Assembly (NCBI GenBank): GCA_031290695.1
Contig: JAITNB010000063.1
Location: 1 to 22,248, forward strand
Source: Coriobacteriales bacterium
GTDB lineage: Bacteria > Actinomycetota > Coriobacteriia > Coriobacteriales > UBA8131
DNA: 22,248 nucleotides
Reading direction: 5' to 3'
Shown here: positions 7,181-22,248 of the stretch, piece after piece
How positions within the stretch are numbered: the first letter of the stretch is position 1
Layout: every line of letters begins with the position of its first letter
Notes under the pieces: generated by a model
Seen by the model: only the letters and a program-made list of their open reading frames with translations
Told to the model about the DNA's origin: nothing
Databases searched by the model: none
Program-made: the position numbers and the translations under genes

Positions 7181-8707
7181 ATGCTTGAGACAAAGGACGA
7201 AGTAACAACAACCGCAGAGCCTCCCGCCAAAAAGAGCAAGGCCCCTGCCCAGGTCGAGCGCCTGGGCACCGCCAAGATAAGCAAGCTGATGGTGGAGTTC
7301 GCGATACCGTCAATCATCGGCCTGGTGGTCAACGGCCTGTATAACATCATCGACTCCATCTTCATGGGACACGCAATGGAGGGCATAGGCCTGGCTACCG
7401 CGCAGATTGCGACTCCCATCATGATCTTTAGCATGGCTGTTGGGGTGCTCATCGGGGCTGGCGGCAATGCGCTTGCGGCCCTGCGGTTGGGCGAGGGCAA
7501 GCACGATGAGGCCGAGCGGGTCATGGGAAACGCCTTCTCACTGACCATCATCGCCGGCGTTCTGTGTACGGCCTTGGTGCTGGTGTTCATAGACCCGGTG
7601 CTCACCCTGTCGGGTGCGAAGGAAGACCTGTGGGAGCCGTCGCATGTGTTTGTACGCATCATCTCGTTTGGGTTCGTGTTGCAGTTCTTTGGCATGGCGT
7701 TCAACAACTTCATCCGCACTGCGGGCGACCCCAACCGCGCGCTCTACACGATGGTGGTGGGCACAGTTGCCTGTATCATCCTCAACTTCTTCTTTGTCAT
7801 GGTGTTTGGGTGGGGTGTCGCGGGCTCCGCATGGGCGACGGTGATTGGCCAAGGGGTCAGCGCCTTTATGATGCTCTGGTACTTCACGTTCTCAAAGAAG
7901 GCGCCCTTCAAGCTGCGTCTGCCCTGCCTCAAGCTCAAGAGACGCCTGGTCACGAGAATCTTCATGCTGGGAGCAGCGGCGTTTGTGCTGCAAAGTGCTA
8001 ATGCAATTATCGGTATCCTCCTCAACCAGCAAATGGGGATCTACGGAGCACTGAGCGGCCTTGCGGCGACCCCTGACGAGTCAGTCACTGCTGTGCTTGC
8101 CGCCATCGGAGTGGTGCAGCGCATCGCCATGTTCACCTTCTTCCCGATACTCGGGGTGGCGATGGCCGCACAGCCGCTCTTTGGCTACAACTACGGCGCG
8201 TCGTCCTTTGACCGCGTCAAGGCGACCTTCAAGGTCTCATTTGCGTGGATCATGGGTATCGGCATCTTCTTCTGGATACTCGTGCACCTGTTTCCCAACC
8301 AGATCGTCAACCTCTTTGGCGTAACGGGCGAGCTGCAACACTTCACGGTGATCGTCCTGCAGGTGCAGCTGTTCCTCATCCCGTTCATGGGCTTGCAGGT
8401 GATAAGCGCGAACTACTTCCAGTCCACCGGCCAGCCTCTCAAGTCGATGCTGCTCTCGCTCACCCGCCAGGTACTCTACCTCATCCCGCTGCTCTATGGG
8501 CTGCCGCTCCTCATGCCGCTTATTAGCCCGTCGTTCAGAGGCGTCGACGGGCTCTACTACGCGTTTCCCATAGCCGACCTGCTCTCGGTCGCCACCGCCA
8601 CCATCATGATGGTGCTCGAGTTCAAGAAGCTCAACGCGAAGATAGCGACAAGCGCGGACAAGAACGCGTCAGCCCTTGCTGTGGAGAAGCCCGCAATCAA
8701 TGCTTGA
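7181..8707 (+). CDS. MATE-family multidrug/sodium efflux transporter
   Basis: A 508-residue integral membrane protein of the MATE family, about the usual length plus a ~25-residue charged N-terminal tail (LETKDEVTTTAEPPAKKSKA). The first transmembrane region carries the family signature LMVEFAIPSIIGLVVNGLYN and IIDSIFMGHAMEGIGLA, and the repeat half contains FNNFIRTAGDPNRALYTMV and the corresponding VQRIAMFTFFPILGVAMAAQ / ANYFQSTGQP segments of the second lobe. Twelve hydrophobic segments can be followed. Members export cationic drugs or metabolites in exchange for Na+ or H+. The ATG at 7181 is preferred, with AGGGAA just upstream; a TTG at 7157 would overlap the birA stop but has no ribosome site. 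Its closeness to birA suggests read-through transcription, without a clear functional link. Confidence 0.93.
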   Translation: MLETKDEVTTTAEPPAKKSKAPAQVERLGTAKISKLMVEFAIPSIIGLVVNGLYNIIDSIFMGHAMEGIGLATAQIATPIMIFSMAVGVLIGAGGNALAALRLGEGKHDEAERVMGNAFSLTIIAGVLCTALVLVFIDPVLTLSGAKEDLWEPSHVFVRIISFGFVLQFFGMAFNNFIRTAGDPNRALYTMVVGTVACIILNFFFVMVFGWGVAGSAWATVIGQGVSAFMMLWYFTFSKKAPFKLRLPCLKLKRRLVTRIFMLGAAAFVLQSANAIIGILLNQQMGIYGALSGLAATPDESVTAVLAAIGVVQRIAMFTFFPILGVAMAAQPLFGYNYGASSFDRVKATFKVSFAWIMGIGIFFWILVHLFPNQIVNLFGVTGELQHFTVIVLQVQLFLIPFMGLQVISANYFQSTGQPLKSMLLSLTRQVLYLIPLLYGLPLLMPLISPSFRGVDGLYYAFPIADLLSVATATIMMVLEFKKLNAKIATSADKNASALAVEKPAINA

Positions 8708-8740
8708 GCACATTCCTGTGTAGCCTCCATTCATTTCCAA

Positions 8741-8842
8741 TTGTGCTTTGCACTGGTACTGCGACTTGGTATCGAGGTAGTGAAGTACCTAAGAGATAGG
8801 CTGCGCTATTTAAGGAAGAAGCCCCGGAGACAACGTAAGTAG
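8741..8842 (+). CDS. Tiny basic peptide frame next to a hairpin (tentative)
   Basis: From a TTG at 8741 (or GTG at 8780) to the TAG at 8840 runs a short frame whose product ends GIEVVKYLRDRLRYLRKK and then a string of Arg/Gln/Lys. It is amphipathic and very basic. Its last codons form the left arm of the 8820-8853 hairpin. This order (short peptide with a basic tail running into a strong hairpin) resembles type I toxin genes of Gram-positives, but the N-terminal half is only moderately hydrophobic and no good ribosome site is visible, so it may be degenerate or not translated. Confidence 0.3.
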   Translation: MCFALVLRLGIEVVKYLRDRLRYLRKKPRRQRK

Positions 8843-8853
8843 TCCCCGGGGCT
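8820..8853. terminator. Strong GC hairpin in the gap after the MATE gene
   Basis: Arms AGCCCCGG (8820-8827) and CCGGGGCT (8846-8853) pair perfectly across an 18-base loop. It could end the birA-MATE transcript or belong to the small peptide locus it overlaps. Position 8708-9125 is otherwise without a clear large gene; it holds the two tiny frames, this hairpin and the paaK fragment. Confidence 0.55.
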
Positions 8854-8869
8854 AAACACCTATCACCTG

Positions 8870-8944
8870 GTGCTGGATGTCCTAATTATGGCAACCTTCG
8901 TCCTGAGCCTTATCTACCTCGTTCAGTCGCTGCGCAGGAGGTAG
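8870..8944 (+). CDS. Tiny hydrophobic single-pass peptide frame (tentative)
   Basis: From GTG at 8870 (or ATG at 8888) to TAG at 8942 the frame encodes about 24 residues: a hydrophobic core DVLIMATFVLSLIYLVQ followed by SLRRR. One membrane-spanning helix with a basic tail is the shape of type I toxin or small membrane peptides. It lies in the same frame as the basic peptide just upstream and 16 bases after the hairpin. No convincing ribosome-binding site is seen, so translation is uncertain. Confidence 0.35.
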   Translation: MLDVLIMATFVLSLIYLVQSLRRR

Positions 8945-8976
8945 CAGCGGATTGGTAGCGGAAACAACCCTTTTGC

Positions 8977-9031
8977 GCGGGGGAGGTCGCCTAGGTTGAC
9001 GGCTTTGAGGGTGACGCTTAGGGCGAGCCTG
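8977..9031 (-). pseudogene. Duplicated 3'-terminal fragment of paaK
   Basis: Positions 8977-9028 match 10064-10115 at 50 of 52 bases in the same orientation. Read on the minus strand it encodes LALSVTLKAVNLGDLPR, against LALSVTPKAVNLGDLPR in the intact ligase. It lacks the rest of the gene, and its tail after LPR diverges (AKGLFPLP instead of SEKKSKRI). It is therefore a remnant of a paralogue or a partial duplication. The two copies flank the hicAB operon. Confidence 0.8.
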
Positions 9032-9125
9032 GTGTGACAAAGTTGGCAGATGTTTCTCCTGTCAGCCGCATTTGATGTAGTAGTTGCAGTTCTTGGGCTT
9101 CACGTTATCACGGAGGATGGAGTGC

Positions 9126-9587
9126 TCATGCCGTCGTTAGCGACTTGCTCGGGCGCCCTGCCTTACGCGGGTTGGCAAGACGGTTGTTGATGGACGCGAG
9201 GGTCACAAGACGCGTGTCGCTGAAGGTAATGGGCTGTAATACCCCGTCATCGAGCATGTGTGCCACGCGCCCCTTTGTGACGCCCAGCATCTCCGCAGCC
9301 TCGGTGACGGTCACGCACTTGCTGCGTTCGATGAGGTCAGGCGTCACCTCGACCGAGACGGCTGTGCGCAAAGTCCCTTCGCAGTATCCTTTGAACACGG
9401 GTTCAGGCAATGTCTCGCCTGTGTCAATGGAGGACGCGATGACAAGCTGCAAGACCTCAGCGGCACGCTCTGTCGCTTGGATGAAGTCATCGCCTTGTGT
9501 GAACGCATCAGGCAGCTGGGGAAAGCTCACAAAATAGCCGCCGCTGTCATCCTTGAACTCTGCCTCATATATGAATCGGGTGCTCAT
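9126..9587 (-). CDS. hicB: HicB-type antitoxin with C-terminal helix-turn-helix
   Basis: A 153-residue antitoxin. Residues 1-~70 (FIYEAEFKDDSGGYFVSFPQLPDAFTQGD..ATERAAEVL) are the degenerate RNase H-like HicB domain that binds and blocks the HicA ribonuclease. Residues ~90-140 (TVTEAAEMLGVTKGRVAHML) form a helix-turn-helix of the excisionase/MerR-like kind, which would let the protein bind its own promoter. The ATG at 9587-9585 has AGGAG six bases upstream. It is the second gene of the operon, 55 bases after hicA, with a hairpin in between. A HicA-HicB complex normally represses its own transcription. Confidence 0.9.
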   Translation of the reverse strand: MSTRFIYEAEFKDDSGGYFVSFPQLPDAFTQGDDFIQATERAAEVLQLVIASSIDTGETLPEPVFKGYCEGTLRTAVSVEVTPDLIERSKCVTVTEAAEMLGVTKGRVAHMLDDGVLQPITFSDTRLVTLASINNRLANPRKAGRPSKSLTTA

Positions 9588-9610
9588 AACGTTCTCCTCT
9601 CGTGTAGGCT

Positions 9611-9637
9611 GGGGCGAAGGCTTGCCGCCCTCGCCCC
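9611..9637. promoter_or_regulatory. Hairpin between hicA and hicB
   Basis: Eleven-pair stem with one G-U pair: GGGGCGAAGGC (9611-9621) against GCCCTCGCCCC (9627-9637), five-base loop. It begins just after the hicA stop and ends about 24 bases before the hicB start. It could slow transcription, protect one half of the message, or set the toxin to antitoxin ratio. Confidence 0.6.
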
Positions 9638-9642
9638 TCCTG

Positions 9643-9828
9643 TCACCATCCGGCTTGCTCCTGGATGCGTTTCCAAGTCTCCCATTTCAAGTTCTCACCT
9701 TTGTCTCCTGCAATGGTCACATTCCTTGCCCCGTTGCTGAACTTCCTATGAGACCCTACCTGGTTGACCTTCCGGTACCCTTCCTTCTCAAGCCTTCCGA
9801 TAACCTCGCGGACTGTCGGTGGTTGCAT
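9643..9828 (-). CDS. hicA: HicA mRNA interferase toxin
   Basis: A 61-residue HicA toxin with a double-stranded-RNA-binding-like fold that cleaves mRNA when free. VREVIGRLEKEGY is helix 1, and QVGSHRKFSNGARNVTI carries the catalytic His (His27) and the following beta strands; the length is typical. The start is placed at ATG 9828-9826 because AAGGAGG lies five bases upstream; the seven-codon-longer frame from ATG 9849 would place that ribosome site inside the coding region. It precedes hicB, the standard order, and has its own promoter just upstream. Confidence 0.92.
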   Translation of the reverse strand: MQPPTVREVIGRLEKEGYRKVNQVGSHRKFSNGARNVTIAGDKGENLKWETWKRIQEQAGW

Positions 9829-9853
9829 GCGTACCTCCTTACCGCGCATTTAT

Positions 9854-9882
9854 ATTATAAACTAGTTGTTAATTAAGTACAA
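9854..9882 (-). promoter_or_regulatory. hicAB promoter
   Basis: On the minus strand TTGTAC (9882-9877) and TATAAT (9859-9854) are separated by exactly 17 bases, the best sigma-70-type promoter in the window, about 25 bases ahead of the hicA start. The spacer contains the palindromes TTAATTAA and AACTAGTT. This AT-rich patch contrasts with the GC-rich surroundings. Confidence 0.75.
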
Positions 9883-9891
9883 TAGAAAGTT

Positions 9892-9903
9892 GCAAGTACT
9901 TGC
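9892..9903. promoter_or_regulatory. Candidate HicB operator palindrome
   Basis: GCAAGTACTTGC is a perfect 12-bp palindrome ten bases upstream of the hicAB -35 box. A half-site AAGTAC recurs at 9875-9880, overlapping the -35 box and 20 bases (about two helical turns) away. The spacing suits cooperative binding of the HicB helix-turn-helix; this is inference. Confidence 0.5.
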
Positions 9904-9911
9904 GTTTTATC

Positions 9912-10022
9912 CTATGAGTTATGTAAACGAATGGCGGCTGTCAGCTTTGCCTTGTGTCCCGGCAGAAGTGCGAGCACAATCTGCCCGCCCTTCTCCCTGA
10001 TTGCAACCCTGGCTGCATCCTC
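9912..10022 (-). other. Start-less open stretch after paaK, possible gene remnant
   Basis: On the minus strand, in a different frame from paaK and immediately after it, about 36 codons stay open to a TAG at 9914-9912 and read like protein: ARVAIREKGGQIVLALLPG followed by HKAKLTAAIRLHNS. There is no start codon of its own. It may be the tail of a small DNA-binding or antitoxin-like protein broken by rearrangement, or chance. Confidence 0.25.
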
Positions 10023-11257
10023 TAATAGCGGTTGTCGAAGATGCGCTTGCTCTTTTTCTCGCTGCGGGGGAGGTCGCCCAGGTTGACGGCTTTGGGGGTG
10101 ACGCTTAGGGCGAGCTTGTCTTTGATGGCCTTGTGCAGGGCGAGCTCTACATAGGGGCGGGAGGGCTCGGGGGCGGCGGTCTCGAAGAAGACTGTCATGA
10201 TGTCTTTGCCGTTGAGGTGGTCGATCATCACCTGGTACTCGCTGCTGGCACCCTCGGTTATGGCGAGGGCCTCCTCGATGTGCGCGGGGAAGATGTTGAT
10301 GCCCTTGACCTTGATCATGTCGTCGCTGCGGCCAATGAGCGTCTCGATGCGGGGGTAGGGGCTGCCGCAGGGGCAGTCGCCGGGTACGATGCGCGTGAGG
10401 TCGTGGGTGCGGTAACGGATGAGCGGTGCACCCTCCTTCTGCAAGGTGGTGATGACAAGCTCGCCGCTCTCTCCCTCGGGCAGTACCGCGCCGGTGGTGG
10501 GGTCGATAATCTCAAAGTAGCAGTAGTCGTCCCAGTAGTGCATGGCCGTCTGCGCGTCGCAGTTGATGCCGATGCCGGGGCCGTAGATCTCGGTGAGGCC
10601 GTAGATGTCGTAGAGGCGCACGCCCAGCTCGTTGGCGATGCGGTTGCGCATCTTCTCGCCCCAGCGCTCGGAGCCTATAACGCCTTTGCGCAGCTTTATC
10701 TTGTCGCCTATACCGCGCTCGGCGATGGTCTCGGCCAGCAGCAGCGCGTAGGACGACGTGGCGCCCAGCACCGTGGACTCGAGGTCGATCATCATCTGGA
10801 GCTGCTTGTCGGTGTTGCCAGGACCCATGGGGATGGCCATCGCGCCCAGCAGCTCGGCTCCCAGTTGAAAGCCTATGCCGGCAGTCCAAAGGCCGTAGCC
10901 CGGTGTGATGTGGATGCGGTCGTCACGTGTCACGCCCGCCATCTCGTAGCAGCGCGCAAACATGAGCGCCCAGTCGTGCACGTCCTTGGCGGTGTAGGGG
11001 ATGATGACCGGCGTACCGGTGGTGCCGCTCGACGAGTGGATGCGCACGATGTCGCGCGCGGGTACTGCGGTAAGCCCCAGCGGGTAGGCATCGCGCAGAT
11101 CGTCCTTGGTGGTAAAGGGGAGCTGCCTAAAGTCCTCCAGCGTATGCACGTCGCGCGGGTCGAGCGCAGCGAACTTGCGCGCGTAGAAGGGGCTGCTGTC
11201 TTTGATGGTCGCAAGCAGGGTGCGTACCTGCTCAAGCGTCTGCGGGCTCATATGCAT
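10022..11257 (-). CDS. paaK: Phenylacetate-CoA ligase family enzyme
   Basis: A 411-residue adenylate-forming ligase that joins an aryl acid (phenylacetate or a relative) to CoA through an acyl-adenylate. Motifs: P-loop SSSGTTGTP (75-83), the aromatic-acid-site segment YGLTEIYGPG (219-228), RYRTHDLT (281-288), the hinge IGRSDDMIKVKGINIFP (308-324) and the C-terminal lysine-bearing LPRSEKKSKRIFDNRY. GDCPCG near 293-298 is common in the family. Length is slightly short of the usual ~430. ATG at 11257 is preferred, with AAAGG upstream; a TTG at 11272 coincides with that site. In anaerobes these ligases often serve aromatic amino-acid fermentation, but the usual partner oxidoreductase genes are not in the window. 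Its 3' end is duplicated at 8977-9028. Confidence 0.92.
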   Translation of the reverse strand: MHMSPQTLEQVRTLLATIKDSSPFYARKFAALDPRDVHTLEDFRQLPFTTKDDLRDAYPLGLTAVPARDIVRIHSSSGTTGTPVIIPYTAKDVHDWALMFARCYEMAGVTRDDRIHITPGYGLWTAGIGFQLGAELLGAMAIPMGPGNTDKQLQMMIDLESTVLGATSSYALLLAETIAERGIGDKIKLRKGVIGSERWGEKMRNRIANELGVRLYDIYGLTEIYGPGIGINCDAQTAMHYWDDYCYFEIIDPTTGAVLPEGESGELVITTLQKEGAPLIRYRTHDLTRIVPGDCPCGSPYPRIETLIGRSDDMIKVKGINIFPAHIEEALAITEGASSEYQVMIDHLNGKDIMTVFFETAAPEPSRPYVELALHKAIKDKLALSVTPKAVNLGDLPRSEKKSKRIFDNRY

Positions 11258-11491: not shown

Positions 11492-14400
11492 ATGAAGAAC
11501 TTGAAAGGCATTTCAACACGGGCAGCGGTAGGCAGATTGGGGACACGAGCACAAAAGCTCTTGTCAACCCTGCTTGCCGTTGTGATGGTGGCGACCATCG
11601 TGCCGCTCTCCAATGCCTCCGCAGCCCCTGAGCCGGAGCAGGCAGCAAGCCCTCAGCAGGAGCAAGGCATTGGTGAGGAGCCTGACGCCGGAGAAGCGAC
11701 GAGCCTTGAAGGCCAGGTGCCAGAAGGCGACGACGATGACCCAGCTGTTGAGCCCGGCTCACTTGCCATCCTGGAGCAACAGGAGGAAGTGGGCATTGCC
11801 GCCCAGGGCATTGCCGCCCAGGAACTCACCCCCCTTGAAGATGGCACTGAGGTAACAGACTGGGCCGGTCTGCGGGCGGCGATAGCCAACACAGCGGTCA
11901 CCCGCATCATCCTCAAAAACGACATTACCCGTGACCTTGTTGGTGGGACTGCGACACAAGCCGCCGCCACTGCCAACGACCTGCCAGCGATTGCCAGGAC
12001 CTTGGAGATCGACGGAGGCGGCTTCACCCTCAACTTCAACAGCCGAGGAGCAACGGCGGTAGACCGGGTTGGCTTTTATCTGGCGAGCAACACCACGCTG
12101 CGCTCCTTTACGCTCCAAAACATCAAGGTCATCAGGAGTGCGGGCACGCATGCCTTGATTAGCGGCAACAACACATCAAACACGGCCACCACAACCAATC
12201 AGTTCACAAACTCGAAGTATTGGACTGTCACGGTAGCGAACATCTCAAACTGGAACGGCACGCAAGCCGGGCAGCCGGATACGGGCGCCACCTCCCTCGT
12301 TGGCCTCTCTGACGGCATCGTTACCTATAAGGGAACCATCCGCTGGAAGATCAACACCGACCATCCCATCGTAAATGCCCGTTTTCACGATTTTGCACCC
12401 GGCTCGGATGTCATATTGTGGAACGGCTTTAATGAGGGCAACATCAGTGTGAGCAGCAGTTTGGCCGACCAGGCTCGTGCCATCCAGAGTTATCCTAACG
12501 AGAACAGCCTGAGCGCACCTGCCGTCATCCAGGCAACCGGCGGTGCACACGTGGAGCTCTATTCTGCCGAGAACCAGGCTGCGAACCTAAACCTGGGCAA
12601 CAGGGACTCCAGCAGCGCAACCAGTACCGCGACGCCCGCGCGCGTTATCGTGCAGGGCGCGGGAACGCACGTATATGCCCACGGCACCGGCTATGGCACG
12701 GACGAATGGGGCGGTACCTTTGCCATCTTTGGCGGCAGCGGTGGCTTCGAGGTCAGCGGTGGTGCGGTGTTGGAGGTCGTTAGCCACGGTTGGGCCGGCT
12801 CAAATGGGAACAACTCATACGGGCAGCCCGCACTTATCCAGCAGATTACGGGCGGTACCTTTAATGTCACCGGCGAAGGGAGCCACCTGCTCATCCAGGC
12901 ACGGTTTGCGAACAACAACTATGGCGGCGCGATCCGCTTTAGATACTGGGGCGGCCAGGTGTTTGAGATATCAGACCACGGCCGCGTGGACGTCATCCGC
13001 GATACCCAGGGAGCGACCGATGACAACAACCCCGCGGCCATCCGTTTTGGCACCGGCGCGGGTAACAAGCTGCATGTCTCGGGCGGCGGCGTCCTCCATG
13101 TGGAGAACAGCGGCAATGGCACCTATGCGAACCACGGTGTCGCCGTTGGCGGCAACGATGCCATTGAGTTCGATGCCGGCGGGTTTGAGTTCACACTGGA
13201 CGGCTACCTGTCTGCGGTCGAGCTTGTCGCACGGCAAGGGGCAGCGCTTGATGCGGGAAGCGACCCCGGGACCATCACGATGGGGCCGGATACGGTATTC
13301 CTGGCCTCCGGCCGCACCAACGCAGACACCGGTGCCATTTTTGGCGCAGGCACGCTTACGTTCACGGCAAACAGCCCCCGGTTCTACGACTTCGTGAACA
13401 CGAGGCCGGGCGGCGGCCGTGTGTTTGCCATCGGCGCATCCAGCACCTTCTCCTCAACCAATTCTGACGTTGCCATCTGGCGCAGGGGCGTTAACGCCAT
13501 CACGGGCAACGCAGACAAGAACCTCACCCTTATCAGCTACGCGTTGTCGGGAACCAGCCTGGGGACCATCTCAGGCACAAGCGATGCCGATATGAGGGCG
13601 TATTACGCTCAAGGCACCGCCTACCGTATGGAGAACTACACCCGTATCAACGGCAACAACGCAGGCCCTGTTATTGGCGCGCTCCTTGACCTCACAAACG
13701 CAGACCGGTATGTGCGTGCCTCGGCGCGCGTGCCAGAAGGCCTGGACCAGGATGGCCGTGGCGTTATGGACGACGAGGCCTTCGCGACCATCAAGGTGAC
13801 GCCGTTTGACGACCCCACCCATCCCTATGAGGTCAGGGGCATCGCCCTGGAAACCGATACCTACTATGAGGCAGAAACGGGCGTTGGCGCACTCGACGGC
13901 GCGATACACTATGCCCTCCCCACAGGGTTTCTCAAAGTGGGCGACACGTATCAGGTCATTGATGCCTGGCGCGGCGACGCGGCCCGCACCGTGGGCAAGA
14001 TACATCCGGCCAGCGCCAGTGACATCGACCGGACCATCAGGACGGTTGCAGACGCGACCCCGCCCCTGCCGGCAACGGTCACGTCGGAGCCCTTCTATGC
14101 AAACCAGCGCAATCTGGCAGGCACCTGGACGCTGGATGCGGCGTATAACGCCGACCCGCCAACCACGGTGTACGCGGCGCTCAATGGCGTGGTGGTCCCT
14201 GGTGTCTTTGGCATTGTGAACGGGGACGGCACCTGGACGTACGCGCTTCCGTCAAGCGTGAGCCTCGCTGAGAACGACAAGGTCCAGATCATCCTGGAGG
14301 ATGCCGCTGGCAACGCCAATCCGCTTGCGACAAGGGCCTTTCGTGACGCGACCTTCCCCCCGGCGACCACCGTTATCGTGCAAAAAGTCCTCTATGACAT

Positions 14401-17400
14401 CACGGGTGCCAACGCCGAGATAGGAACCCAACAAGCCCAAGACATCCTTGACAGCATGGATGTTGACGCCGCCATCATCACGCAACTGGGTGCCCAGGGC
14501 ATTGACAGCTCCAAGCCGGTTGGCAGCCAAGGCACTGCCATTGAGGTAGCGAGTGCGGGCGGCCTCAGCGCAACACCGGGGCTCTACACCATCACGCTTG
14601 TCATCTCTGACACCAAGGCTGGTACGCCGTGGACCAAGGCCTTCACCATCCGTGTGCTCCCCAACGAGTACATCGTGTTGGGCGCGCGGTACAGCATCGG
14701 CTACGATGCGGCACCGCGCATGAACAAGGCGCTTGCGGCGAGCATCACCGACGCTGGGCTCCTGCTACGCCACAAGGTGACAGTCTATGACCGGGAGGAC
14801 AACTATAAGGTGGTACCCGACCGCGCGGCGGTAACGACGGGCAGCAGGAGCTTCCCCCTGGATGCCGCGCAAGGCCAGACGAAGCCCGGCACCTTTAACG
14901 TCCATGTTATCAATGACGTCCCTGAGGCAATACCTTCCACAAACGCCACCGTCCCGGTCACCATCGGTGACGGCGCACTGCCTACTGTGGCCGCCAGCTC
15001 CCCGCTCCAAGTCGTCTCGGGTGTGGCAAGCTACAATCCTTTGCAAGACGTCACTTCCAACGACCTTGAGGACGGTCTCAACGGCCCCGCAATCAAGCTG
15101 GTCGAGACCGATGGCGCAGGCAACCCTGTTTATGATGGAGAAGGCAACCCGGTCTGTCTCGACCCCACCTATGCCAACTCCAACGTCTCTGGCAAGCTGA
15201 GTATACCGGGCGTCTATGTGGACACCTATACCGCGGTGGACTCTGATGGCAACTATGCCGCGCCCGTCAAGCGCGTGATCGTGGTCAACGACGGCACCTA
15301 TAGCGTTGGCCCACGCTACATCGTTTATGCCCGCAGCTATGCCATCGCAAAGACGGCCGTTGCCGGTACCAACGACGAGGTGCTCGCGCAATCTCACGCC
15401 GCTGCCTGGAACGCCCAAACCGGGGCCGTGGCAACGCCCGTTGTTATCGACAAAGATGGCTATACGGGCACCGCGGGCGTGTATCCTGCCACGATAGGCG
15501 TTGTTGGCGATGACGGCGACCCTCTGGCCCTCCGCCCCATCAAGATACAGGTCATCGACCGCGAGGTCATCGCTGATGACGGCAACGGCTTCTTTGTTGG
15601 CGCCAACAGCTTCAGGATCAACACGACTGATGAACTGGGCGTTACCAATGCCCGGCTGCTCACCCGCGCAAGCGCGGTGGCCTACGTGGTCACCAGTGCC
15701 ATCGGCCAGGCCGATATTGTTGCCTCGGTACCTGCCGCGGTAGACGCCTATACGGGCAACCGTGACGGCATCCCTGCGGGCGGCGGCTCAACGGCCCTCT
15801 ATGACCTGAGTGTCGCCAACAGCGCGGACCCGGCGACAAAGGCCCTGGTCAACGTGACCCTCTCAAACGGCAACCCCCCTGTTATCACCACTGCAACCCC
15901 CCTCGTGATAGAAAAAGGCACGGGGATAATCCTGAGCTCAGACCCCTATACCGGAGCGGCCTATATCGGCGAGGTATTCGACTACTCACAAGGCGTTGCG
16001 GCCACTGACGACTTCGACATTGTCGCAGGCGACCCCACCCATGCCTTCACGGGCCCCGTGACGCACAACACCGTGTATGCAAACTGGGGCACCGCTCCCG
16101 CCGGTGTCTATACCGTCGTCTACTCCGCCACCGACAGTGACGGCAACACGGCCACCAGCAACCGCGTGGTTGTGGTTGACGACGGTTCAATCACCATTGG
16201 CGGCACCTACATCATCCAGGCACGCAACTTTGTGGCCCTGCTCAAGGATGTTCCCGATGCGGCTGCGGGTGCCGCTGCCCTCGACGCTCATATCCTCTCA
16301 AAATCTGGCGCACGCGCCTGGTACAAGGAAGACGGAGCAGACCATAGCGCCGGCGAGATTGCCCTCGGCGCCCTCGTTTTGAGCAAAGCTGGCTACCATG
16401 ACGCAGTGGGCGCGTACACGCCCATCGTTGTCTCTGCCGTGCTCGACCCCGGGATTGGGCTGATACCGGACGCAACCGCCATCAGGAATATCACGGGCAA
16501 GGTCGTCGATGCCGACCTCATCTTCGAGGACGACCCCTCCTACATCATCACGGCCAATAACTTCGCCCTGTCGCTTGACGACGCGCTGCTCTACAATACT
16601 GACGTGTTGATGAAGGCGGCACTTATCAGCCGCTCGGGGGCAACAGCCTATGAGCGTGCGACACTCAATGAGGTAGGCGTTACCGTTACTGACGAGACCG
16701 TGCCGGCCCCTCCCGTTATCGGGGAATATACGGCCAGCTACGCAGTGACTGGTCACGAGGCAGTGAGTGTGAGGGGAACTGTTGACATCAACAGCGGCAA
16801 CCCCCCAGCCCTTACCGCGACCACTCCCCTTGAGGTTGAGAAGGGCACGGGCAACATCAAGATGCCCGGCGACGCGAGCGGCGTGTACTCTGGCGCGCCC
16901 TTTACCCCTCTGGCAGGCATAACGGTTATCGACCAGGAGGACGGTGCGTATCCCACGGCTAACGCCAACGGCCTGTTCCCCGAAGGCAACATTACGTGGC
17001 AGGGCTCCGTTGACCTCAACGTCGATGGCGTCTATACGGTTGTCTACACGGCGACCGACCTGGTGGGCAACCAGGACACGGCGACCCGTATCGTCGTCGT
17101 TAACGACGGCACCTACACGGTGGCCCCCGACTATATCCTGCAAGCGCGCGGCTTTGTTATCAAGGGGAGCGACGTGCAGCCAAACAGCCAGGCACAGGTG
17201 CTCGTCAAGACCAGGGCCCGGGCGTGGAACGCCCAAACGGGAGTGCCCGTCGAGGCCTTTGTTGGCGATTTTGGCACCCCGCTCTACAGCAGTACCCCTG
17301 ATGACTATACGATTACCATAGCAGTTAGTAACAACACCACGGTCACCGCCCCTGTTACGGCCAGGGTCATCTCGCAGACTATCATCGTCGAGCCAGAAGA

Positions 17401-20400
17401 CGGCGACGACCACTACTACATCACCGCCGATGAGGCCCTCATAAACTCGTATGACTACGACCGGGCAACTCCTGCGACCATCGACCTCCTGGCCCGCTGC
17501 AACGTCCATGCGTATCGGGACGACCGTGTGGCCACCGAGGTGCAGACGTCAGACCTCACAACCAGCAGCTTTAACGGCACGACCGACCCTGACGGCACCT
17601 ATGACGGCAGGACGGGCGTATACGGGGCGGTCTTCTCCATCACCTTGCCCGATGCGAACGGCAAGAGCACCGGCACTGTGAAGGTCACCGTCGACGACCG
17701 CAACGCACCGGTGCTTGAGTTCTCCAACCCGGTAAGCCTTAAGCTCAACGATCCCAGCTTTACCACCCCGCTCGACGGTGTGACCGCAACCGACGTCGAG
17801 GACGGTGCCCTTGTGCCGGTCATCGACCCGGGCAGCGAGACGGTCGACCTCACCACCGCGGGTGTTTATGTTGTTGTTATCAGCGCGACGGACAGCGACC
17901 ACAACACGGTGACGGGGCTGCGCACCTTTGTGGTGGGCGACCTCATCATCGGCGACCGGTACATCATCGGCGCCGCGAGCTTCAATATCAAGGACACGCT
18001 CGTCGATGTCTCGTCTGATGCCGCGAAAAGGAGACAGATACTCACAGCGTCTGGTACCCAGGTCTGGACCCGCGATGGTGCCTATGTTGATAACGACCCA
18101 ACAAAGGAGTTCATCTATACGGGCGGTGCGACCCCGGTCACCAATCTCGACACGCTCAGTACCCTGCGGGTAGCAGATGGTGGCTACACCAACGTGGCAC
18201 AGGACACCCCCTACGCCATCGTCATCGACTTCTCGGACGACCCCAAGGCGAAGGAGAACATCGATGCGCTCGTGTGGACGGGCGCCATCAATGACACCGG
18301 CGATTATCTGCTCAACTGGCAGGACTTCTCAATCACCATCGCCCAGGCCAAGACCGTCACCGGCCTCAACAGAGGTACGGCTGCCGCCAATGCTCAGGTT
18401 GTAGCCTGGGGCCACGCCAAAGTGTTTGACAAGGCACACGGCTTTGCCCTGGTTCCCAATGGGGCAAAGGTCGATACCTACACCATCGAGGCCGTCTCGA
18501 ACCTAATCCCTGGGTATGAGGCGATCTACAGCGTGAACGTGGCCAACCCCCCGGTGGGGACGGGAACCGCGAAGGTGAAGGTCCTCGGCGGCGCCCCGCC
18601 CACCGTGAATGCGAGTTCTCCTTTAGACATCGAGGCTGGCACGGCGAGCTATGACCCCCTCACAAATGTGACCGCAGCAGACCCCGAGGACGCCCCTGCC
18701 GGTTATGCGGATAAGAGCAACATCTACCTCGTCAAGACTGAGGGAGGCACCACAACCTATGTCGCACCCACCTATGCGAACTCGAATGTCGACCTGGGCG
18801 TGCCAGGCGTCTACGTTGACACCTATACTGCCCTGGACTCCGATGATAATTACGCGACACCGGTCAAGCGTGTTGTCGTGGTCAACGACGGCACCTACAG
18901 CGTTGGCTCCAAGTACATCGTTTATGCCCAAAGCTATGCCATCGCACAGGCAGACGTCCTTGGCACCGATGCCGAGATACTCGCGGAATCTGGTCCCGCC
19001 AGGGCGTGGTCGGCCATCACCGGCGACGCGGCGGTGCCCGTTGTTAGCGCCAATGGCGGCTATACGGCCGCTGAGGGAGTTTATCCCGCCACGATAGGCG
19101 TGTCTGGTGACGAGGGCACACCCGTGGCAGGGCAGGCCCGTCGCGACATCAAGATACAGGTTATCGACCGCGAGGTCATCACGAGCGATGGCAAGGGTCA
19201 CTTTGTAGGCGCCAACGCGTTTAAGATGAACTCGACGGCAGAGACAGGCATCGATGACGAGACCCTGCTCGCAAACGCAAACGCCGTTGCCTATGTGGTC
19301 GTGAGCATCAACAAGCAGCCCGACACCGTTACCCAGGTAGACGCGGCAGTGCCAAACGGCGGGTACTCCGGGCATCGTGACGGCACCAAGGGCGAGTATA
19401 TACTGTCGGTCGCCAACAGCCAGAGCCTCACGACCGTAGCGGTGGTCAAGGTACAGGTCACCGACGGCCTGCCCCCGCAGATCAGCTTCGACACCCCGGT
19501 TGTCATCAGCAAGGGCGCGGGCTTTAACAACATGACGGGTGTTACCGCGACAGACCACGAGGACGGGCCTCTCCCCAACAGCGCGATACACGTTGTTGCG
19601 GTTGGCCCTGCGGTTGACACCAGCGCCGTTGGCGTGTACACGCTTACCTACTCCGTTACCGACAGCGACTTCAATACGGTCACGCGCAACCGCGTTGTCG
19701 TGGTCAATGACGGCTCGATTATCGTGGGCGACACCTACGTCATCCAAGCACGCAACTTCGTGGCGCTGCTTAGGGAGGTACCAAGCAACAGCGCCGCCCT
19801 GGACGCCCATATCCTCACCAAGGCAGGTGCGCGTGCCTGGTATAAGGAAGACGGAGCAGGGCATAGCGCCGGGCAGCCTTTCACCGGTGAGCTTGTTGTT
19901 GTAGACAGCGCCTCCTACCAAAAGGCGGTAGGCACCTATGCCCCCATCAAGATAACGACACTCGACGAGACGTCCCTGCCGCGCGAGATTACTGGCAAGG
20001 TGGTCGATGCCGACCATATCTTTGGTACCGACGATTACGTCATCACGGCCAATGATGTGTCGATGCTGCTCTCTGAGGCCGATGCGGGCGGGCTTGCAGA
20101 CGCTGCGCTTGTCTCCCGCTCACAGGCAACGGCTTACAACCGGGCGAACTTCGCCGAGGTGCTCGGTGCCACGGTTGCCAGCAAGAACGTACCCACTGCC
20201 GGTGTCACCGGTGCTGGCTGGGCCAATTACGCCATTGCCGGGCATACTGAGGTGAGGGTACAGGGTGCCGTCGAGGTAACCCAAGGCGACCCTCCTGTGC
20301 TTAGCGTCAACCCGATAACCTACACGGTTGCGCTGGGCGCTGCCTACGACCCCCAGGACGGCGTCTCGGCTACCGACCCACAAGACGGCAGCCTTACGTT

Positions 20401-22248
20401 CACAGCGAGCCCCGCCGGTGCCGGCATCAGGTACACGGGCCTGGTGAACACGGCTGTTGACGGCGTCTACCCCATTGTTTACACTGCGACCGACTCCGAT
20501 GGCAATACGGATACCAAGACACGCATCGTCGTTGTGGACGATGGTACCTACACCATCACGAGCGACTACATCCTGCGGGCCCGCGGCTTTGTTATCAAGG
20601 GCAGCAACGTGCTTACCAACGACCAGACGCAGACGCAGGTTCTTACCAAGTCCAAGGCGAAGGCCTGGGATGCCACGACCGGCGACGAGGTTGCGGCCGT
20701 GGTCACGAACTTCAACGGCTACAGCCGCATTCCTGCCAACTATACTATAACCATAGCAGTTGACAATGAGCGGACCGTCACCGCCACGATAACGGCCAAA
20801 GTCATCTCGCAGACTATCCTTGTCGAGCCAGACGACGACGGCGACCACTACTTTATCGCTGCCGACCCGGCACGCCTGAACCCGGTTGACTACGACACCA
20901 CAACACGCGCTGACCTTATAGGCCTCACCAATGCCAATGCCTGGAAAGACGACCGTGGGCTCGACCCAAAGGCCGTGCAGGTAGATGACTTCACCGGTGA
21001 GCTTGGCGGCGCTCTTGGCAACCCCGCGACTACCTACAACGGCGTGCAGGGCAACTACTTCGCGACCTTCTCGGTCATTGAGAACCCTGCGACCAGGGTC
21101 GTCGATGTGCCGGTCTTGGTCACCACGGGAGGATTCCCCGAAATCGCGTTCACCCAGAACCCGGTTACCCTGCCGCTTGGTACGGGAACCGCTCCTGATG
21201 CAGTCCTGCTTGACGGCGTGACGGCAACCGACAAGGAAGACAACGACAACGGCCTTACGGTCACGCCGGTTGTCGCTGCCAACAGCCCCGCAGTAGACCT
21301 TGCCACCGAGGGCGTTTACGTTGTCTACTACTCCGCTACCGACAGCGACTACAACACGACAACCAAGCCGCGCACCTTTGTGGTGGGCGACCTCGTGGTG
21401 GGGGACACCTACATCGTCGGCGCTGAGGACTTCTACCTCCATGAGGACGATGTTGAGACGGCAGACCCCGCAAAGAGGTCGCAGGTGCTCAGCGAGTCGC
21501 ATACCAAGGTCTGGAGACGCAACGCCGACGGCAGTGCTACCCCGGTTGCCAGCCCCGCTGCGATCGACACCCTTGGGATAGCCTATGACGGCGCCCACAC
21601 CTACACCAACGTGGCAAGCGACACACCGTATCCCCTCACAATCAGCTTCTCGGACGACCTCCTTGCAACCAAGAGCATCAAGGCGCTGGTGTACAAGGGC
21701 ACCATCATCGAGCGCGACGGCTATCTGCTCAACTACCAGGACATCCCCAACCCCAGCTTCCCCGTTTTCTCACGGGAGAACGCCCAGAGCGTTACCGGCA
21801 TCAATAAGATGACGGATGTCTCCCGCAACAAGCTCATCGAATGGGGCGTGGCCAAGGCGTTCAAGCTGGTAGACTTCGCCCTTGTCCCGGTAGAGGTTGT
21901 TGATTATGACATCCAGGACAACGCCCTCCAGACGTGGCACGTCACCTACCAGGTTGCCGAGAAGCCAACGGTGACCGGCACCAACGATGTCACCGTCACG
22001 GGCGGTGCGCCGCCAACCGTGAACGCAACCACGCCTATCGAGATATGGGTGGGCGGCAGCTATGACCCAATGACGAACGTCTCCGCACATGACTCTGAGG
22101 ATGACGCCAACGGCATCCCTGTTAGCGTCCAGCTTAATGGCAGGGCGCCTACGCTGGCGAACTCGAATGTCGACGTGAATACGCCCGGCGTGTATGTTGA
22201 TACGTACTTGGCCGTCGACTCCGAGGCCAATGAGTCGCTGCCGGTCAC
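11492..22248 (+). CDS. Giant secreted multi-domain adhesin with nested Ig-like repeats (3' end beyond window)
   Basis: I translated one uninterrupted frame of 3585 codons that is still open at the window edge. Residues 1-44 are a signal peptide (hydrophobic STLLAVVMVATIVPLSNASA, cleavage near ASA-AP). Residues 45-~118 are an acidic Pro/Glu linker. From ~119 (TDWAGLRAAIAN..VTRIILKNDIT) to ~650 is a beta-helix matching the pectate-lyase-like adhesive domain of Gram-positive surface proteins. A Big_6-like domain lies near 855-945. From residue 1164 the stalk consists of ~273-309-residue modules: one DUF5011-like Ig domain (GVYVDTYTAVDSDGN..VVVNDGTY) followed by two related, unnamed ~100-residue domains. 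Only two cysteines are seen. The wall anchor must lie outside. Likely role: cell-surface adhesion. Start chosen from AGGGGAG and the signal peptide. Confidence 0.95.
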   Translation, partial: MKNLKGISTRAAVGRLGTRAQKLLSTLLAVVMVATIVPLSNASAAPEPEQAASPQQEQGIGEEPDAGEATSLEGQVPEGDDDDPAVEPGSLAILEQQEEVGIAAQGIAAQELTPLEDGTEVTDWAGLRAAIANTAVTRIILKNDITRDLVGGTATQAAATANDLPAIARTLEIDGGGFTLNFNSRGATAVDRVGFYLASNTTLRSFTLQNIKVIRSAGTHALISGNNTSNTATTTNQFTNSKYWTVTVANISNWNGTQAGQPDTGATSLVGLSDGIVTYKGTIRWKINTDHPIVNARFHDFAPGSDVILWNGFNEGNISVSSSLADQARAIQSYPNENSLSAPAVIQATGGAHVELYSAENQAANLNLGNRDSSSATSTATPARVIVQGAGTHVYAHGTGYGTDEWGGTFAIFGGSGGFEVSGGAVLEVVSHGWAGSNGNNSYGQPALIQQITGGTFNVTGEGSHLLIQARFANNNYGGAIRFRYWGGQVFEISDHGRVDVIRDTQGATDDNNPAAIRFGTGAGNKLHVSGGGVLHVENSGNGTYANHGVAVGGNDAIEFDAGGFEFTLDGYLSAVELVARQGAALDAGSDPGTITMGPDTVFLASGRTNADTGAIFGAGTLTFTANSPRFYDFVNTRPGGGRVFAIGASSTFSSTNSDVAIWRRGVNAITGNADKNLTLISYALSGTSLGTISGTSDADMRAYYAQGTAYRMENYTRINGNNAGPVIGALLDLTNADRYVRASARVPEGLDQDGRGVMDDEAFATIKVTPFDDPTHPYEVRGIALETDTYYEAETGVGALDGAIHYALPTGFLKVGDTYQVIDAWRGDAARTVGKIHPASASDIDRTIRTVADATPPLPATVTSEPFYANQRNLAGTWTLDAAYNADPPTTVYAALNGVVVPGVFGIVNGDGTWTYALPSSVSLAENDKVQIILEDAAGNANPLATRAFRDATFPPATTVIVQKVLYDITGANAEIGTQQAQDILDSMDVDAAIITQLGAQGIDSSKPVGSQGTAIEVASAGGLSATPGLYTITLVISDTKAGTPWTKAFTIRVLPNEYIVLGARYSIGYDAAPRMNKALAASITDAGLLLRHKVTVYDREDNYKVVPDRAAVTTGSRSFPLDAAQGQTKPGTFNVHVINDVPEAIPSTNATVPVTIGDGALPTVAASSPLQVVSGVASYNPLQDVTSNDLEDGLNGPAIKLVETDGAGNPVYDGEGNPVCLDPTYANSNVSGKLSIPGVYVDTYTAVDSDGNYAAPVKRVIVVNDGTYSVGPRYIVYARSYAIAKTAVAGTNDEVLAQSHAAAWNAQTGAVATPVVIDKDGYTGTAGVYPATIGVVGDDGDPLALRPIKIQVIDREVIADDGNGFFVGANSFRINTTDELGVTNARLLTRASAVAYVVTSAIGQADIVASVPAAVDAYTGNRDGIPAGGGSTALYDLSVANSADPATKALVNVTLSNGNPPVITTATPLVIEKGTGIILSSDPYTGAAYIGEVFDYSQGVAATDDFDIVAGDPTHAFTGPVTHNTVYANWGTAPAGVYTVVYSATDSDGNTATSNRVVVVDDGSITIGGTYIIQARNFVALLKDVPDAAAGAAALDAHILSKSGARAWYKEDGADHSAGEIALGALVLSKAGYHDAVGAYTPIVVSAVLDPGIGLIPDATAIRNITGKVVDADLIFEDDPSYIITANNFALSLDDALLYNTDVLMKAALISRSGATAYERATLNEVGVTVTDETVPAPPVIGEYTASYAVTGHEAVSVRGTVDINSGNPPALTATTPLEVEKGTGNIKMPGDASGVYSGAPFTPLAGITVIDQEDGAYPTANANGLFPEGNITWQGSVDLNVDGVYTVVYTATDLVGNQDTATRIVVVNDGTYTVAPDYILQARGFVIKGSDVQPNSQAQVLVKTRARAWNAQTGVPVEAFVGDFGTPLYSSTPDDYTITIAVSNNTTVTAPVTARVISQTIIVEPEDGDDHYYITADEALINSYDYDRATPATIDLLARCNVHAYRDDRVATEVQTSDLTTSSFNGTTDPDGTYDGRTGVYGAVFSITLPDANGKSTGTVKVTVDDRNAPVLEFSNPVSLKLNDPSFTTPLDGVTATDVEDGALVPVIDPGSETVDLTTAGVYVVVISATDSDHNTVTGLRTFVVGDLIIGDRYIIGAASFNIKDTLVDVSSDAAKRRQILTASGTQVWTRDGAYVDNDPTKEFIYTGGATPVTNLDTLSTLRVADGGYTNVAQDTPYAIVIDFSDDPKAKENIDALVWTGAINDTGDYLLNWQDFSITIAQAKTVTGLNRGTAAANAQVVAWGHAKVFDKAHGFALVPNGAKVDTYTIEAVSNLIPGYEAIYSVNVANPPVGTGTAKVKVLGGAPPTVNASSPLDIEAGTASYDPLTNVTAADPEDAPAGYADKSNIYLVKTEGGTTTYVAPTYANSNVDLGVPGVYVDTYTALDSDDNYATPVKRVVVVNDGTYSVGSKYIVYAQSYAIAQADVLGTDAEILAESGPARAWSAITGDAAVPVVSANGGYTAAEGVYPATIGVSGDEGTPVAGQARRDIKIQVIDREVITSDGKGHFVGANAFKMNSTAETGIDDETLLANANAVAYVVVSINKQPDTVTQVDAAVPNGGYSGHRDGTKGEYILSVANSQSLTTVAVVKVQVTDGLPPQISFDTPVVISKGAGFNNMTGVTATDHEDGPLPNSAIHVVAVGPAVDTSAVGVYTLTYSVTDSDFNTVTRNRVVVVNDGSIIVGDTYVIQARNFVALLREVPSNSAALDAHILTKAGARAWYKEDGAGHSAGQPFTGELVVVDSASYQKAVGTYAPIKITTLDETSLPREITGKVVDADHIFGTDDYVITANDVSMLLSEADAGGLADAALVSRSQATAYNRANFAEVLGATVASKNVPTAGVTGAGWANYAIAGHTEVRVQGAVEVTQGDPPVLSVNPITYTVALGAAYDPQDGVSATDPQDGSLTFTASPAGAGIRYTGLVNTAVDGVYPIVYTATDSDGNTDTKTRIVVVDDGTYTITSDYILRARGFVIKGSNVLTNDQTQTQVLTKSKAKAWDATTGDEVAAVVTNFNGYSRIPANYTITIAVDNERTVTATITAKVISQTILVEPDDDGDHYFIAADPARLNPVDYDTTTRADLIGLTNANAWKDDRGLDPKAVQVDDFTGELGGALGNPATTYNGVQGNYFATFSVIENPATRVVDVPVLVTTGGFPEIAFTQNPVTLPLGTGTAPDAVLLDGVTATDKEDNDNGLTVTPVVAANSPAVDLATEGVYVVYYSATDSDYNTTTKPRTFVVGDLVVGDTYIVGAEDFYLHEDDVETADPAKRSQVLSESHTKVWRRNADGSATPVASPAAIDTLGIAYDGAHTYTNVASDTPYPLTISFSDDLLATKSIKALVYKGTIIERDGYLLNYQDIPNPSFPVFSRENAQSVTGINKMTDVSRNKLIEWGVAKAFKLVDFALVPVEVVDYDIQDNALQTWHVTYQVAEKPTVTGTNDVTVTGGAPPTVNATTPIEIWVGGSYDPMTNVSAHDSEDDANGIPVSVQLNGRAPTLANSNVDVNTPGVYVDTYLAVDSEANESLPV
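14981..18598 (+). repeat. Adhesin super-repeat copy 1 (modules A1-B1-C1-D1)
   Basis: Four consecutive modules starting at 14981 (PTVAASSP), 15875 (PPVITTATP), 16802 (PPALTATTP) and 17705 (APVLEFSNP); 298, 309, ~302 and ~297 residues. Each type has its own fingerprint: A has VVVNDGTYSVG and SYAIA, B has IIQARNFVALL and RAWYKEDGA, C has ILQARGFVIKGS and RVISQTIIVEP, D has RTFVVGDLIIGD and FDKAHGFALVP. Confidence 0.88.
18599..22012 (+). repeat. Adhesin super-repeat copy 2 (modules A2-B2-C2-D2)
   Basis: The same four types return in the same order at 18599 (PTVNASSP), 19472 (PPQISFDTP), 20291 (PPVLSVNP) and 21137 (PEIAFTQNP), 204 bases shorter in total than copy 1. Corresponding modules resemble each other far more than their neighbours, for example RAWYKEDGA..HSAG in both B modules, and long stretches are near-identical at DNA level. 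Confidence 0.88.
22013..22248 (+). repeat. Start of adhesin super-repeat copy 3 (A3, cut by window)
   Basis: PTVNATTPIE, YDPMTNVSA, LANSNVDV and GVYVDTYLAVDSEAN match the Ig domain of modules A1 and A2, so a third block begins here and the gene continues past the window. Confidence 0.85.

What the first reader, a model, noticed from the sequence alone, without database searches (positions are those of the whole stretch)
14981..22248. Nested repeat architecture: a four-module block repeated as a unit
The stalk of the giant protein is not a simple tandem array. Four distinguishable modules (A, B, C, D; ~273-309 residues each) occur in fixed order, and the whole ~1140-1206-residue block recurs, with a third copy starting at 22013. 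Type-specific marks (RAWYKEDGA in B, ARGFVIKGS in C, VVGDL at the end of the D Ig domain) return only at the block period. This implies growth of the gene by duplication of the complete block, giving a stalk whose length can change in ~3.5-kb steps.
Basis: seen in the sequence. Interest (0 to 1): 0.7.

Follow-up and report, generated by a model that had tools for sequence, protein, structure and literature searches.

The report
Bacterial stalk built from repeating blocks
A giant bacterial surface-type protein carries a stalk made of the same block of four different modules copied end to end, and related proteins often differ in length by whole blocks, so the stalk seems to grow and shrink one block at a time, much as the muscle protein titin did.

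Summary
ORF 11492-22246 (3,585 codons, cut by the contig end) has eight modules, each an Ig-like domain plus a pair of unnamed ~95-residue domains, in order A-B-C-D-A-B-C-D, then the start of a third A. Same-type pairs are 45-58% identical, different types 26-37%.

Relatives support block growth. In 34 of 47 module chains the best self-similarity lag is 4. In a tree of 48 blocks, six proteins have two middle blocks that are sisters at support 100. Two sister pairs differ by exactly 4 and exactly 12 internal modules. The window's own duplication is old: four-fold sites are 40-54% identical, 33% by chance.

The rule is not absolute: ends are ragged, one relative lost two internal modules, and periods 3 and 5 exist.

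I read it as a bacterial counterpart of titin/nebulin super-repeats, close in idea to Periscope Proteins but failing their identity criterion. Testable idea: blocks keep neighbouring modules unlike (at most 43% identical) yet keep recombinable copies twelve domains apart. Function, anchoring and strain-level variation are not shown.

The parts
11492..22246 (+). Giant ORF, 3,585 codons, no stop, open at the contig end
   Evidence: the window appears to be the whole contig (P0001, longest contig 22248)
11846..12247 (+). N-terminal head: Pectate_lyase_5, putative pectate-lyase-like adhesive domain (PF20585, residues 119-252)
   Evidence: E 1.2e-12; a hydrophobic segment at residues 20-38 is signal-peptide-like (my reading)
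14357..14974 (+). Degenerate domain pair between head and first block (residues 956-1161)
   Evidence: aligns to the pair model over part of its length but resembles no block type in particular
14975..18592 (+). Block 1 (A1-B1-C1-D1), 1,206 residues
18593..22006 (+). Block 2 (A2-B2-C2-D2), 1,138 residues
14975..15871 (+). Module A1: Ig 14975-15295, X pair 15296-15871
   Evidence: pair 58% identical to A2, Ig 66%
15872..16798 (+). Module B1: Ig 15872-16186, X pair 16187-16798 (RAWYKEDGA)
   Evidence: pair 56% identical to B2; Ig not type-specific
16799..17701 (+). Module C1: Ig 16799-17110, X pair 17111-17701 (ARGFVIKGS)
   Evidence: pair 51% identical to C2
17702..18592 (+). Module D1: Ig 17702-17941 (ends VVGD), X pair 17942-18592
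   Evidence: pair 45% identical to D2, Ig 60%
18593..19468 (+). Module A2
19469..20287 (+). Module B2; with the next Ig it was modelled (19469-20545), and its X pair alone (19715-20287)
   Evidence: mean pLDDT 95.3; 94.3
20288..21130 (+). Module C2
21131..22006 (+). Module D2
22007..22246 (+). Start of a third block: A3 Ig, cut by the contig end
   Evidence: 50% and 59% identical to A1 and A2 Ig, 28-37% to the other types

Best explanation
Shown: the protein has a pectate-lyase-like head and a long run of Ig-like domains in a nested repeat: an Ig plus two further domains make a module, four divergent modules make a block, and the block repeats. Shown in relatives: stalks differ by whole blocks, mostly in the middle, while first and last blocks stay orthologous. 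Inferred mechanism: because neighbouring modules have drifted to at most about 43% identity, unequal exchange and conversion find good partners only between like modules one block apart, so the block perpetuates itself as the unit of change. Inferred function: an exported, surface-anchored, adhesin-like stalk that holds the head away from the cell, its reach set by block number (12 domains per block).
For: Block period in the window. Best self-similarity lag 4 in 34 of 47 chains with six or more modules; four of the loci are the same contigs as listed proteins, so 31 of 43 distinct chains. Over 24 proteins that I chose as period-4 members, domain-pair identity above 50% occurs in 40 of 174 lag-4 pairs, 3 of 82 lag-8 pairs, and 0 of 243, 220, 198, 150, 126 and 103 pairs at lags 1, 2, 3, 5, 6 and 7; Ig identity above 60% in 35 of 204 lag-4, 2 of 108 lag-8 and none at lags 1-3 and 5-7. 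Whole-block events: P0008 lag-4 identities 80, 78, 83, 79 against 26-44 elsewhere in the chain, and runs of four in P0010, P0014, P0015, P0018 and L001 (74, 99, 100, 83). Block tree: six lineage-specific middle-block pairs at support 100; all 8 final blocks that could be entered in one clade at 100. P0016 against P0026 (N-terminal regions 83% identical): modules 0-7 and 12-13 of P0016 pair one-to-one at 64-96%; modules 8-11 are extra. L012 against L007 (68%, same genome): exactly 12 extra modules. L001 has a 1,590-base exact repeat at offset 3,495. P0006: a 5-module block recurring about three times, three of its modules clearly and one weakly matching P0021's types. Models: mean pLDDT 95.3 and 94.3. 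Head: PF20585.
Against: The window's own blocks are old, and no near-identical strain with another block number was found; the one near-identical pair (P0017, L002, N-terminal 98%) has equal numbers. Ends are ragged (168 terminal gaps, 11 of size 4 and 2 of size 8), and 43 of 121 internal gaps are not multiples of four; all seven of size 3 involve P0008, and many of the 21 of size 2 involve L031. Six of 47 chains have best lag 1, two lag 3, three lag 5, one lag 7, one a weak lag 6. The 1.6-kb exact repeats come from Illumina assemblies and could be assembly errors. Type correspondence between the window's subfamily and the larger one is not established. The contig lacks the C-terminus, so anchoring is inferred; export, ligand and reach are untested.
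Confidence: 0.82

Rival explanations
1. The period is set by structure or a partner: four modules (12 domains) match a pitch or binding register, as proposed for titin on the thick filament, and selection keeps whole blocks.
For: Best lag 4 in 34 of 47 chains; type order is conserved within each of two subfamilies.
Against: P0006 has a 5-module block recurring about three times, L015 and P0005 have best lag 3, and ends vary by single modules: no single pitch is obligatory.
Confidence: 0.15
2. The blocks are ancient and kept alike by gene conversion between like modules; copy number hardly changes.
For: L031 has a 1,606-base exact tract whose flanks at the same offset are mostly 40-70% identical; L001 has a 1,590-base one flanked by roughly 70-98%.
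Against: Copy number does differ between sisters by whole blocks, and duplicated middle blocks are lineage-specific, although conversion could also produce sister blocks. Conversion probably acts as well.
Confidence: 0.2
3. Short-read misassembly created the blocks.
For: Contigs come from metagenomes; two exact tracts of about 1.6 kb exceed Illumina read length.
Against: Block copies in the window are 45-58% identical in their domain pairs with no exact repeat above 25 bases, which assembly cannot invent; the pattern recurs in many contigs.
Confidence: 0.03
4. Four module types were recruited separately and are alike at the block period only because each position has its own ligand.
For: Types are conserved across proteins within a subfamily.
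Against: Whole blocks are sisters within single proteins, and identity rises together over four consecutive modules.
Confidence: 0.04

Closest known systems
Titin A-band super-repeats (PMC10665226, passages read)
   Same: Fixed-order blocks of beta-sandwich domains; [quoted passage not shown]
   Different: Eukaryotic sarcomere protein of Ig and FnIII domains; here a bacterial protein with other domains and no known filament partner
Multi-domain duplication units in domain repeats, e.g. nebulin units of seven (PMC1553488, passages read)
   Same: Several domains copied at a time, often mid-repeat; the authors say selection against aggregation may favour duplications of several domains
   Different: A general survey that finds repeats far commoner in eukaryotes; this bacterial family was not in the passages seen
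Periscope Proteins (PMC8201768, passages; review PMC9704523, passages)
   Same: Surface-protein stalk under an N-terminal head; length varies through copy number of a DNA repeat
   Different: Their repeats are adjacent and near-identical (82-100% in Sgo_0707; detection at 80% or more); here neighbouring modules are at most 43% identical and the copied unit is a 12-domain block
Fibrillar adhesins (PMC8286594, passages)
   Same: Adhesive domain plus stalk of tandem domains
   Different: The terms DUF5011, Pectate_lyase and Coriobact- do not occur in that paper's main text

Membership tests
[quoted passage not shown]
   In the window, domain pairs of different types, neighbours included, are 26-37% identical and block copies 45-58%. 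L001 reaches 99-100% at lag 4, not between neighbours
Periscope Proteins | Repeat number differs between close relatives | tested here: inconclusive
   Sister proteins differ by 4 and by 12 modules; no strain-level comparison for the window; P0017 and L002 (98%) have the same number
Periscope Proteins / fibrillar adhesins | N-terminal ligand-binding or adhesive domain | tested here: inconclusive
   PF20585, a putative adhesive domain, E 1.2e-12; binding untested
Periscope Proteins / fibrillar adhesins | C-terminal cell-surface anchor | not testable with these tools
   Contig ends first. Five relatives scanned whole with NCBIfam: FILTED (NF052597, cutoff 40 bits) scores 42.1 in P0021, 53.4 in P0020, 39.8 and 39.4 (just under) in P0012 and P0026, none in P0004; some others have P[KN]TG motifs
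Titin/nebulin-type super-repeat (architecture, not homology) | Multi-domain unit repeated in fixed order, copied as a whole | tested here: met
PF16403 Bact_surface_Ig-like | Matches above the curated cutoff | tested here: met
   148.9 bits against cutoff 27, 7 stretches
Any Pfam family for the non-Ig (X) domains | Consistent match | tested here: not met
   First member no match; no family matched more than 3 of 90 members at E up to 0.1, best single E 0.00097
InlK D3 / Big_3 / Rib-like Ig folds (X domains) | Clear structural match | tested here: inconclusive

The most novel reading that the evidence does not exclude
The block is an adaptive compromise: by placing recombinable copies twelve domains apart and keeping physical neighbours at or below about 43% identity, these bacteria obtain Periscope-like variable stalk length without the misfolding cost of identical neighbours. 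The four-type block would then be a selected recombination unit, not a leftover of history.
Probability: 0.25. Interest if true: 0.75.

Novelty: new variant of a known kind. Interest (0 to 1): 0.55.

Why it matters
Multi-domain super-repeats are well known for titin and nebulin. The paper searches made here, judged from titles and abstract starts only, listed no bacterial surface protein described this way; they cover only open-licence PMC papers and simple terms. The family gives a natural experiment: many sister genes, several paralogues in some genomes, stalk lengths stepping often by one block. It bears on a question raised in the Periscope work: how surface stalks vary in length when identical neighbours tend to misfold. 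If general, searches for length-variable adhesins that demand tandem repeats of 80% identity would miss it.

Tried and rejected
Whole genome of the window: none held. Plasmid records: no match in near mode. First genome scan with the window's stalk: 5 stretches matched a pattern, none a relative; the second, with an alignment of six relatives, found 20 loci. I asked whether the pair before A1 is a D-like remnant, which would shift the block's phase: it resembles no type in particular, so the block start is placed at the A Ig, where DNA similarity also rises. I asked whether the window's types map onto the larger subfamily: the best cyclic shift is often 1, but the unconstrained optimum scored slightly higher with another mapping (54,035 against 53,800) and cross-group best hits scatter, so this is left open. 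Sliding identity for L012 is invalid, because the compared stretches overlap and align to themselves, and for L032 it drifts off register; neither is used. P0025 and L017 (same contig) give period 4 with one Ig model (P0025) and 5 with another. Two further protein searches gave 5 and 4 hits, the query itself included. Promoter, RNA-family and viral-contig searches were not used.

Full report
WHAT IS THERE. The window appears to be a whole contig (P0001 reports a longest contig of 22,248). Its last half is one ORF, 11492-22246, open at the contig end. Pfam finds a Pectate_lyase_5 head (residues 119-252, E 1.2e-12) and Bact_surface_Ig-like domains (PF16403, 148.9 bits, seven stretches), and leaves about 190-217 residues between consecutive Ig domains without a family above its cutoff. 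Those stretches hold two domains, X1 and X2, which resemble each other only weakly (25% median identity over 270 modules of 24 proteins; in the window, z above 3 against shuffles for four of the eight block modules, below 2 for C1, D1 and D2).

CHECK OF THE OBSERVATION. Of ten DNA self-matches with E up to 1e-3, six, including the five best, lie at offsets of 3,417-3,597 bases; the other four are 31-45 bases long. For the X pairs, A, B, C and D copies are 58, 56, 51 and 45% identical, different types 26-37%, and the weakest same-type score (326) is twice the best different-type score (155). The Ig domains agree for A and D but not for B and C: B1's Ig is as close to C2's as to B2's, so Ig domains may have been exchanged or converted separately. 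A third A begins at 22007.

AGE IN THE WINDOW. Four-fold-degenerate third positions of same-type modules are 54, 40, 50 and 52% identical where 33% is expected from base composition, and the longest exact repeat is 25 bases. The block duplication in this copy is old.

RELATIVES. A search with the stalk returned 33 proteins, the window's own included. A second genome scan returned 20 loci. Fourteen of the 20 have sample codes Nt197, Nc150 or Emb289, which PMC7024585 (passages) gives as the termites Neocapritermes taracua, Nasutitermes corniger and Embiratermes neotenicus; the hosts of the other six I did not check. The window's DinG-like protein is 64% identical to that of G001 (Nt197P3bin113) and 43-53%, in pieces, to those of G002 and G003, whose records are titled Eggerthellaceae, so the window probably comes from a Coriobacteriia lineage nearer G001; its sample is unknown. 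In the family of G002, 9 of 138 genomes matched a block from L002 at E up to 0.001, but only three (G002, G003, G140) strongly.

PERIODICITY ACROSS THE FAMILY. Of 47 chains with at least six modules, the best lag (the smallest within 85% of the top mean score) is 4 in 34, 5 in three, 3 in two, 7 in one, a weak 6 in one, and 1 in six. In 24 proteins that I chose as period-4 members, pair identity above 50% never occurs at lags 1, 2, 3, 5, 6 or 7 (0 of 243, 220, 198, 150, 126, 103), but in 40 of 174 pairs at lag 4 and 3 of 82 at lag 8. Among 18 period-4 proteins that I chose, the best matching of types is cyclic in 108 of 153 protein pairs, 25.5 expected; the best global cyclic register scores 53,800 against a maximum of 26,425 in 300 scrambles. 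Most of this signal comes from the 14 proteins of one subfamily. The window's subfamily (P0001, P0002, P0004, P0020) shares a register, with the best hit in another member of the same type for 31 of 37 modules; its register against the larger group is not settled.

WHOLE-BLOCK EVENTS. In P0008, P0010, P0014, P0015 and P0018 exactly four consecutive lag-4 pairs are raised (for example 80, 78, 83, 79% against 26-44% in P0008); L001 gives 74, 99, 100, 83. L001 against P0021: modules 4-7 and 8-11 of L001 both match modules 4-7 of P0021; P0008 against L033 shows the same. In a midpoint-rooted tree of 48 blocks from 17 proteins of the larger subfamily (blocks lacking three usable modules dropped; P0010, P0023 and L031 not entered), the two middle blocks of L001, P0008, P0014, P0015, P0018 and L012 are sisters at support 100, the 8 final blocks entered form a clade at 100, and the 16 first blocks entered lie in one clade at 94 that also holds the second blocks of P0016 and P0026. 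Sister proteins P0016 and P0026 differ by exactly modules 8-11; L012 and L007, from one genome, by exactly modules 4-15. The other pairs with N-terminal identity of 50% or more: P0017 and L002 have equal numbers; L008 and L005 lack two modules at the far end; L031 lost two internal modules and others at its ends; P0008 is damaged near its end. Over 190 chain alignments of 20 proteins that I chose, which are not independent and used gap costs of my own, internal gaps are 4 (64), 8 (12) and 12 (2), against 1 (14), 2 (21), 3 (7) and 6 (1); terminal gaps are mostly 1-3 (144 of 168).

DNA OF THE EVENTS. In L001 the duplicated stretch runs from about ORF base 7,250 to 10,790 at offset 3,495; identity falls from 76% to 40% within about 120 bases at its end, next to an Ig start at 10,807. 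It includes a 1,590-base exact repeat. L031 has a 1,606-base exact tract at offset 3,537, with flanks mostly 40-70% identical. These look like recent conversion or exchange, but both assemblies rest on Illumina reads and may be wrong there. The 5-module chain P0006 is informative: in each five, modules 1-3 clearly match three types of P0021, module 0 matches a fourth weakly, the last matches none consistently, and the five recur about three times. The block itself seems to have changed size and then been copied at the new size, which favours recombination history over a fixed pitch of four.

HOW IT MOST LIKELY WORKS. Shown: architecture, block-wise copy-number differences among relatives, conserved end blocks. 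Inferred: export, surface anchoring (FILTED or P[KN]TG motifs in several relatives; the window lacks its end), adhesive role of the head, and reach set by block number. Mechanistic inference: like modules a block apart are the only good partners for unequal exchange, so the block perpetuates itself. Nearest-neighbour domains are never above 42% identical (X1-X2, n 270) or 40% (X-Ig, n 540) in the 24 proteins, below the 50% that PMC8201768 (passages) cites as usual for adjacent domains in large multidomain proteins; Periscope stalks break that rule, this family does not.

COMPARISON. It resembles titin and nebulin super-repeats in architecture and mid-array growth (passages of PMC10665226 and PMC1553488), and Periscope Proteins in presumed purpose, but fails their identity criterion. 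I call it a new variant of a known kind.

Noticed in passing
G002 (genome of L003), contigs C4, C8, C10, C11, C23: One genome of about 2.0 Mb carries at least six related giant open frames (5675, 5124, 5094, 4883, 4848 and 2961 codons), about 86 kb or 4% of the genome.
   Followed up: partly
P0034, P0035, P0036: Proteins whose N-terminal region resembles that of P0021 (42, 40 and 37% identity over residues 120-1000) but with another stalk (Pfam PF02369, PF00630 and others; P0036 named from a Propionibacteriaceae MAG): head and stalk seem to be swapped as units.
   Followed up: no
C-termini of P0021, P0012, P0020, P0002, P0004 against P0019, P0008, P0025: Two kinds of C-terminus in one family: three or four hydrophobic segments, matching or nearly matching FILTED in P0021, P0012 and P0020, not in P0004, P0002 not tested; or a P[KN]TG motif followed by a hydrophobic stretch and basic tail (tails printed).
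   Followed up: partly
window 9126-9587 (-): HicB-like antitoxin domain (PF15919, E 1.5e-6); no HicA was looked for.
   Followed up: no
window 1318-4254 (+): Exonuclease (RNase_T) fused to a helicase C-terminal domain (Helicase_C_2), DinG-like by my reading; used only to place the window among relatives.
   Followed up: partly
L012 ORF, 7,382 codons: The longest frame among the loci segmented, 20 Ig domains, in the same genome as its 8-Ig paralogue L007.
   Followed up: yes
window Ig domains B1 and C1 (15872-16186, 16799-17110): Both are about 20 residues longer than their block-2 partners and score higher with each other than with those partners, as if Ig domains were exchanged within block 1.
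   Followed up: no
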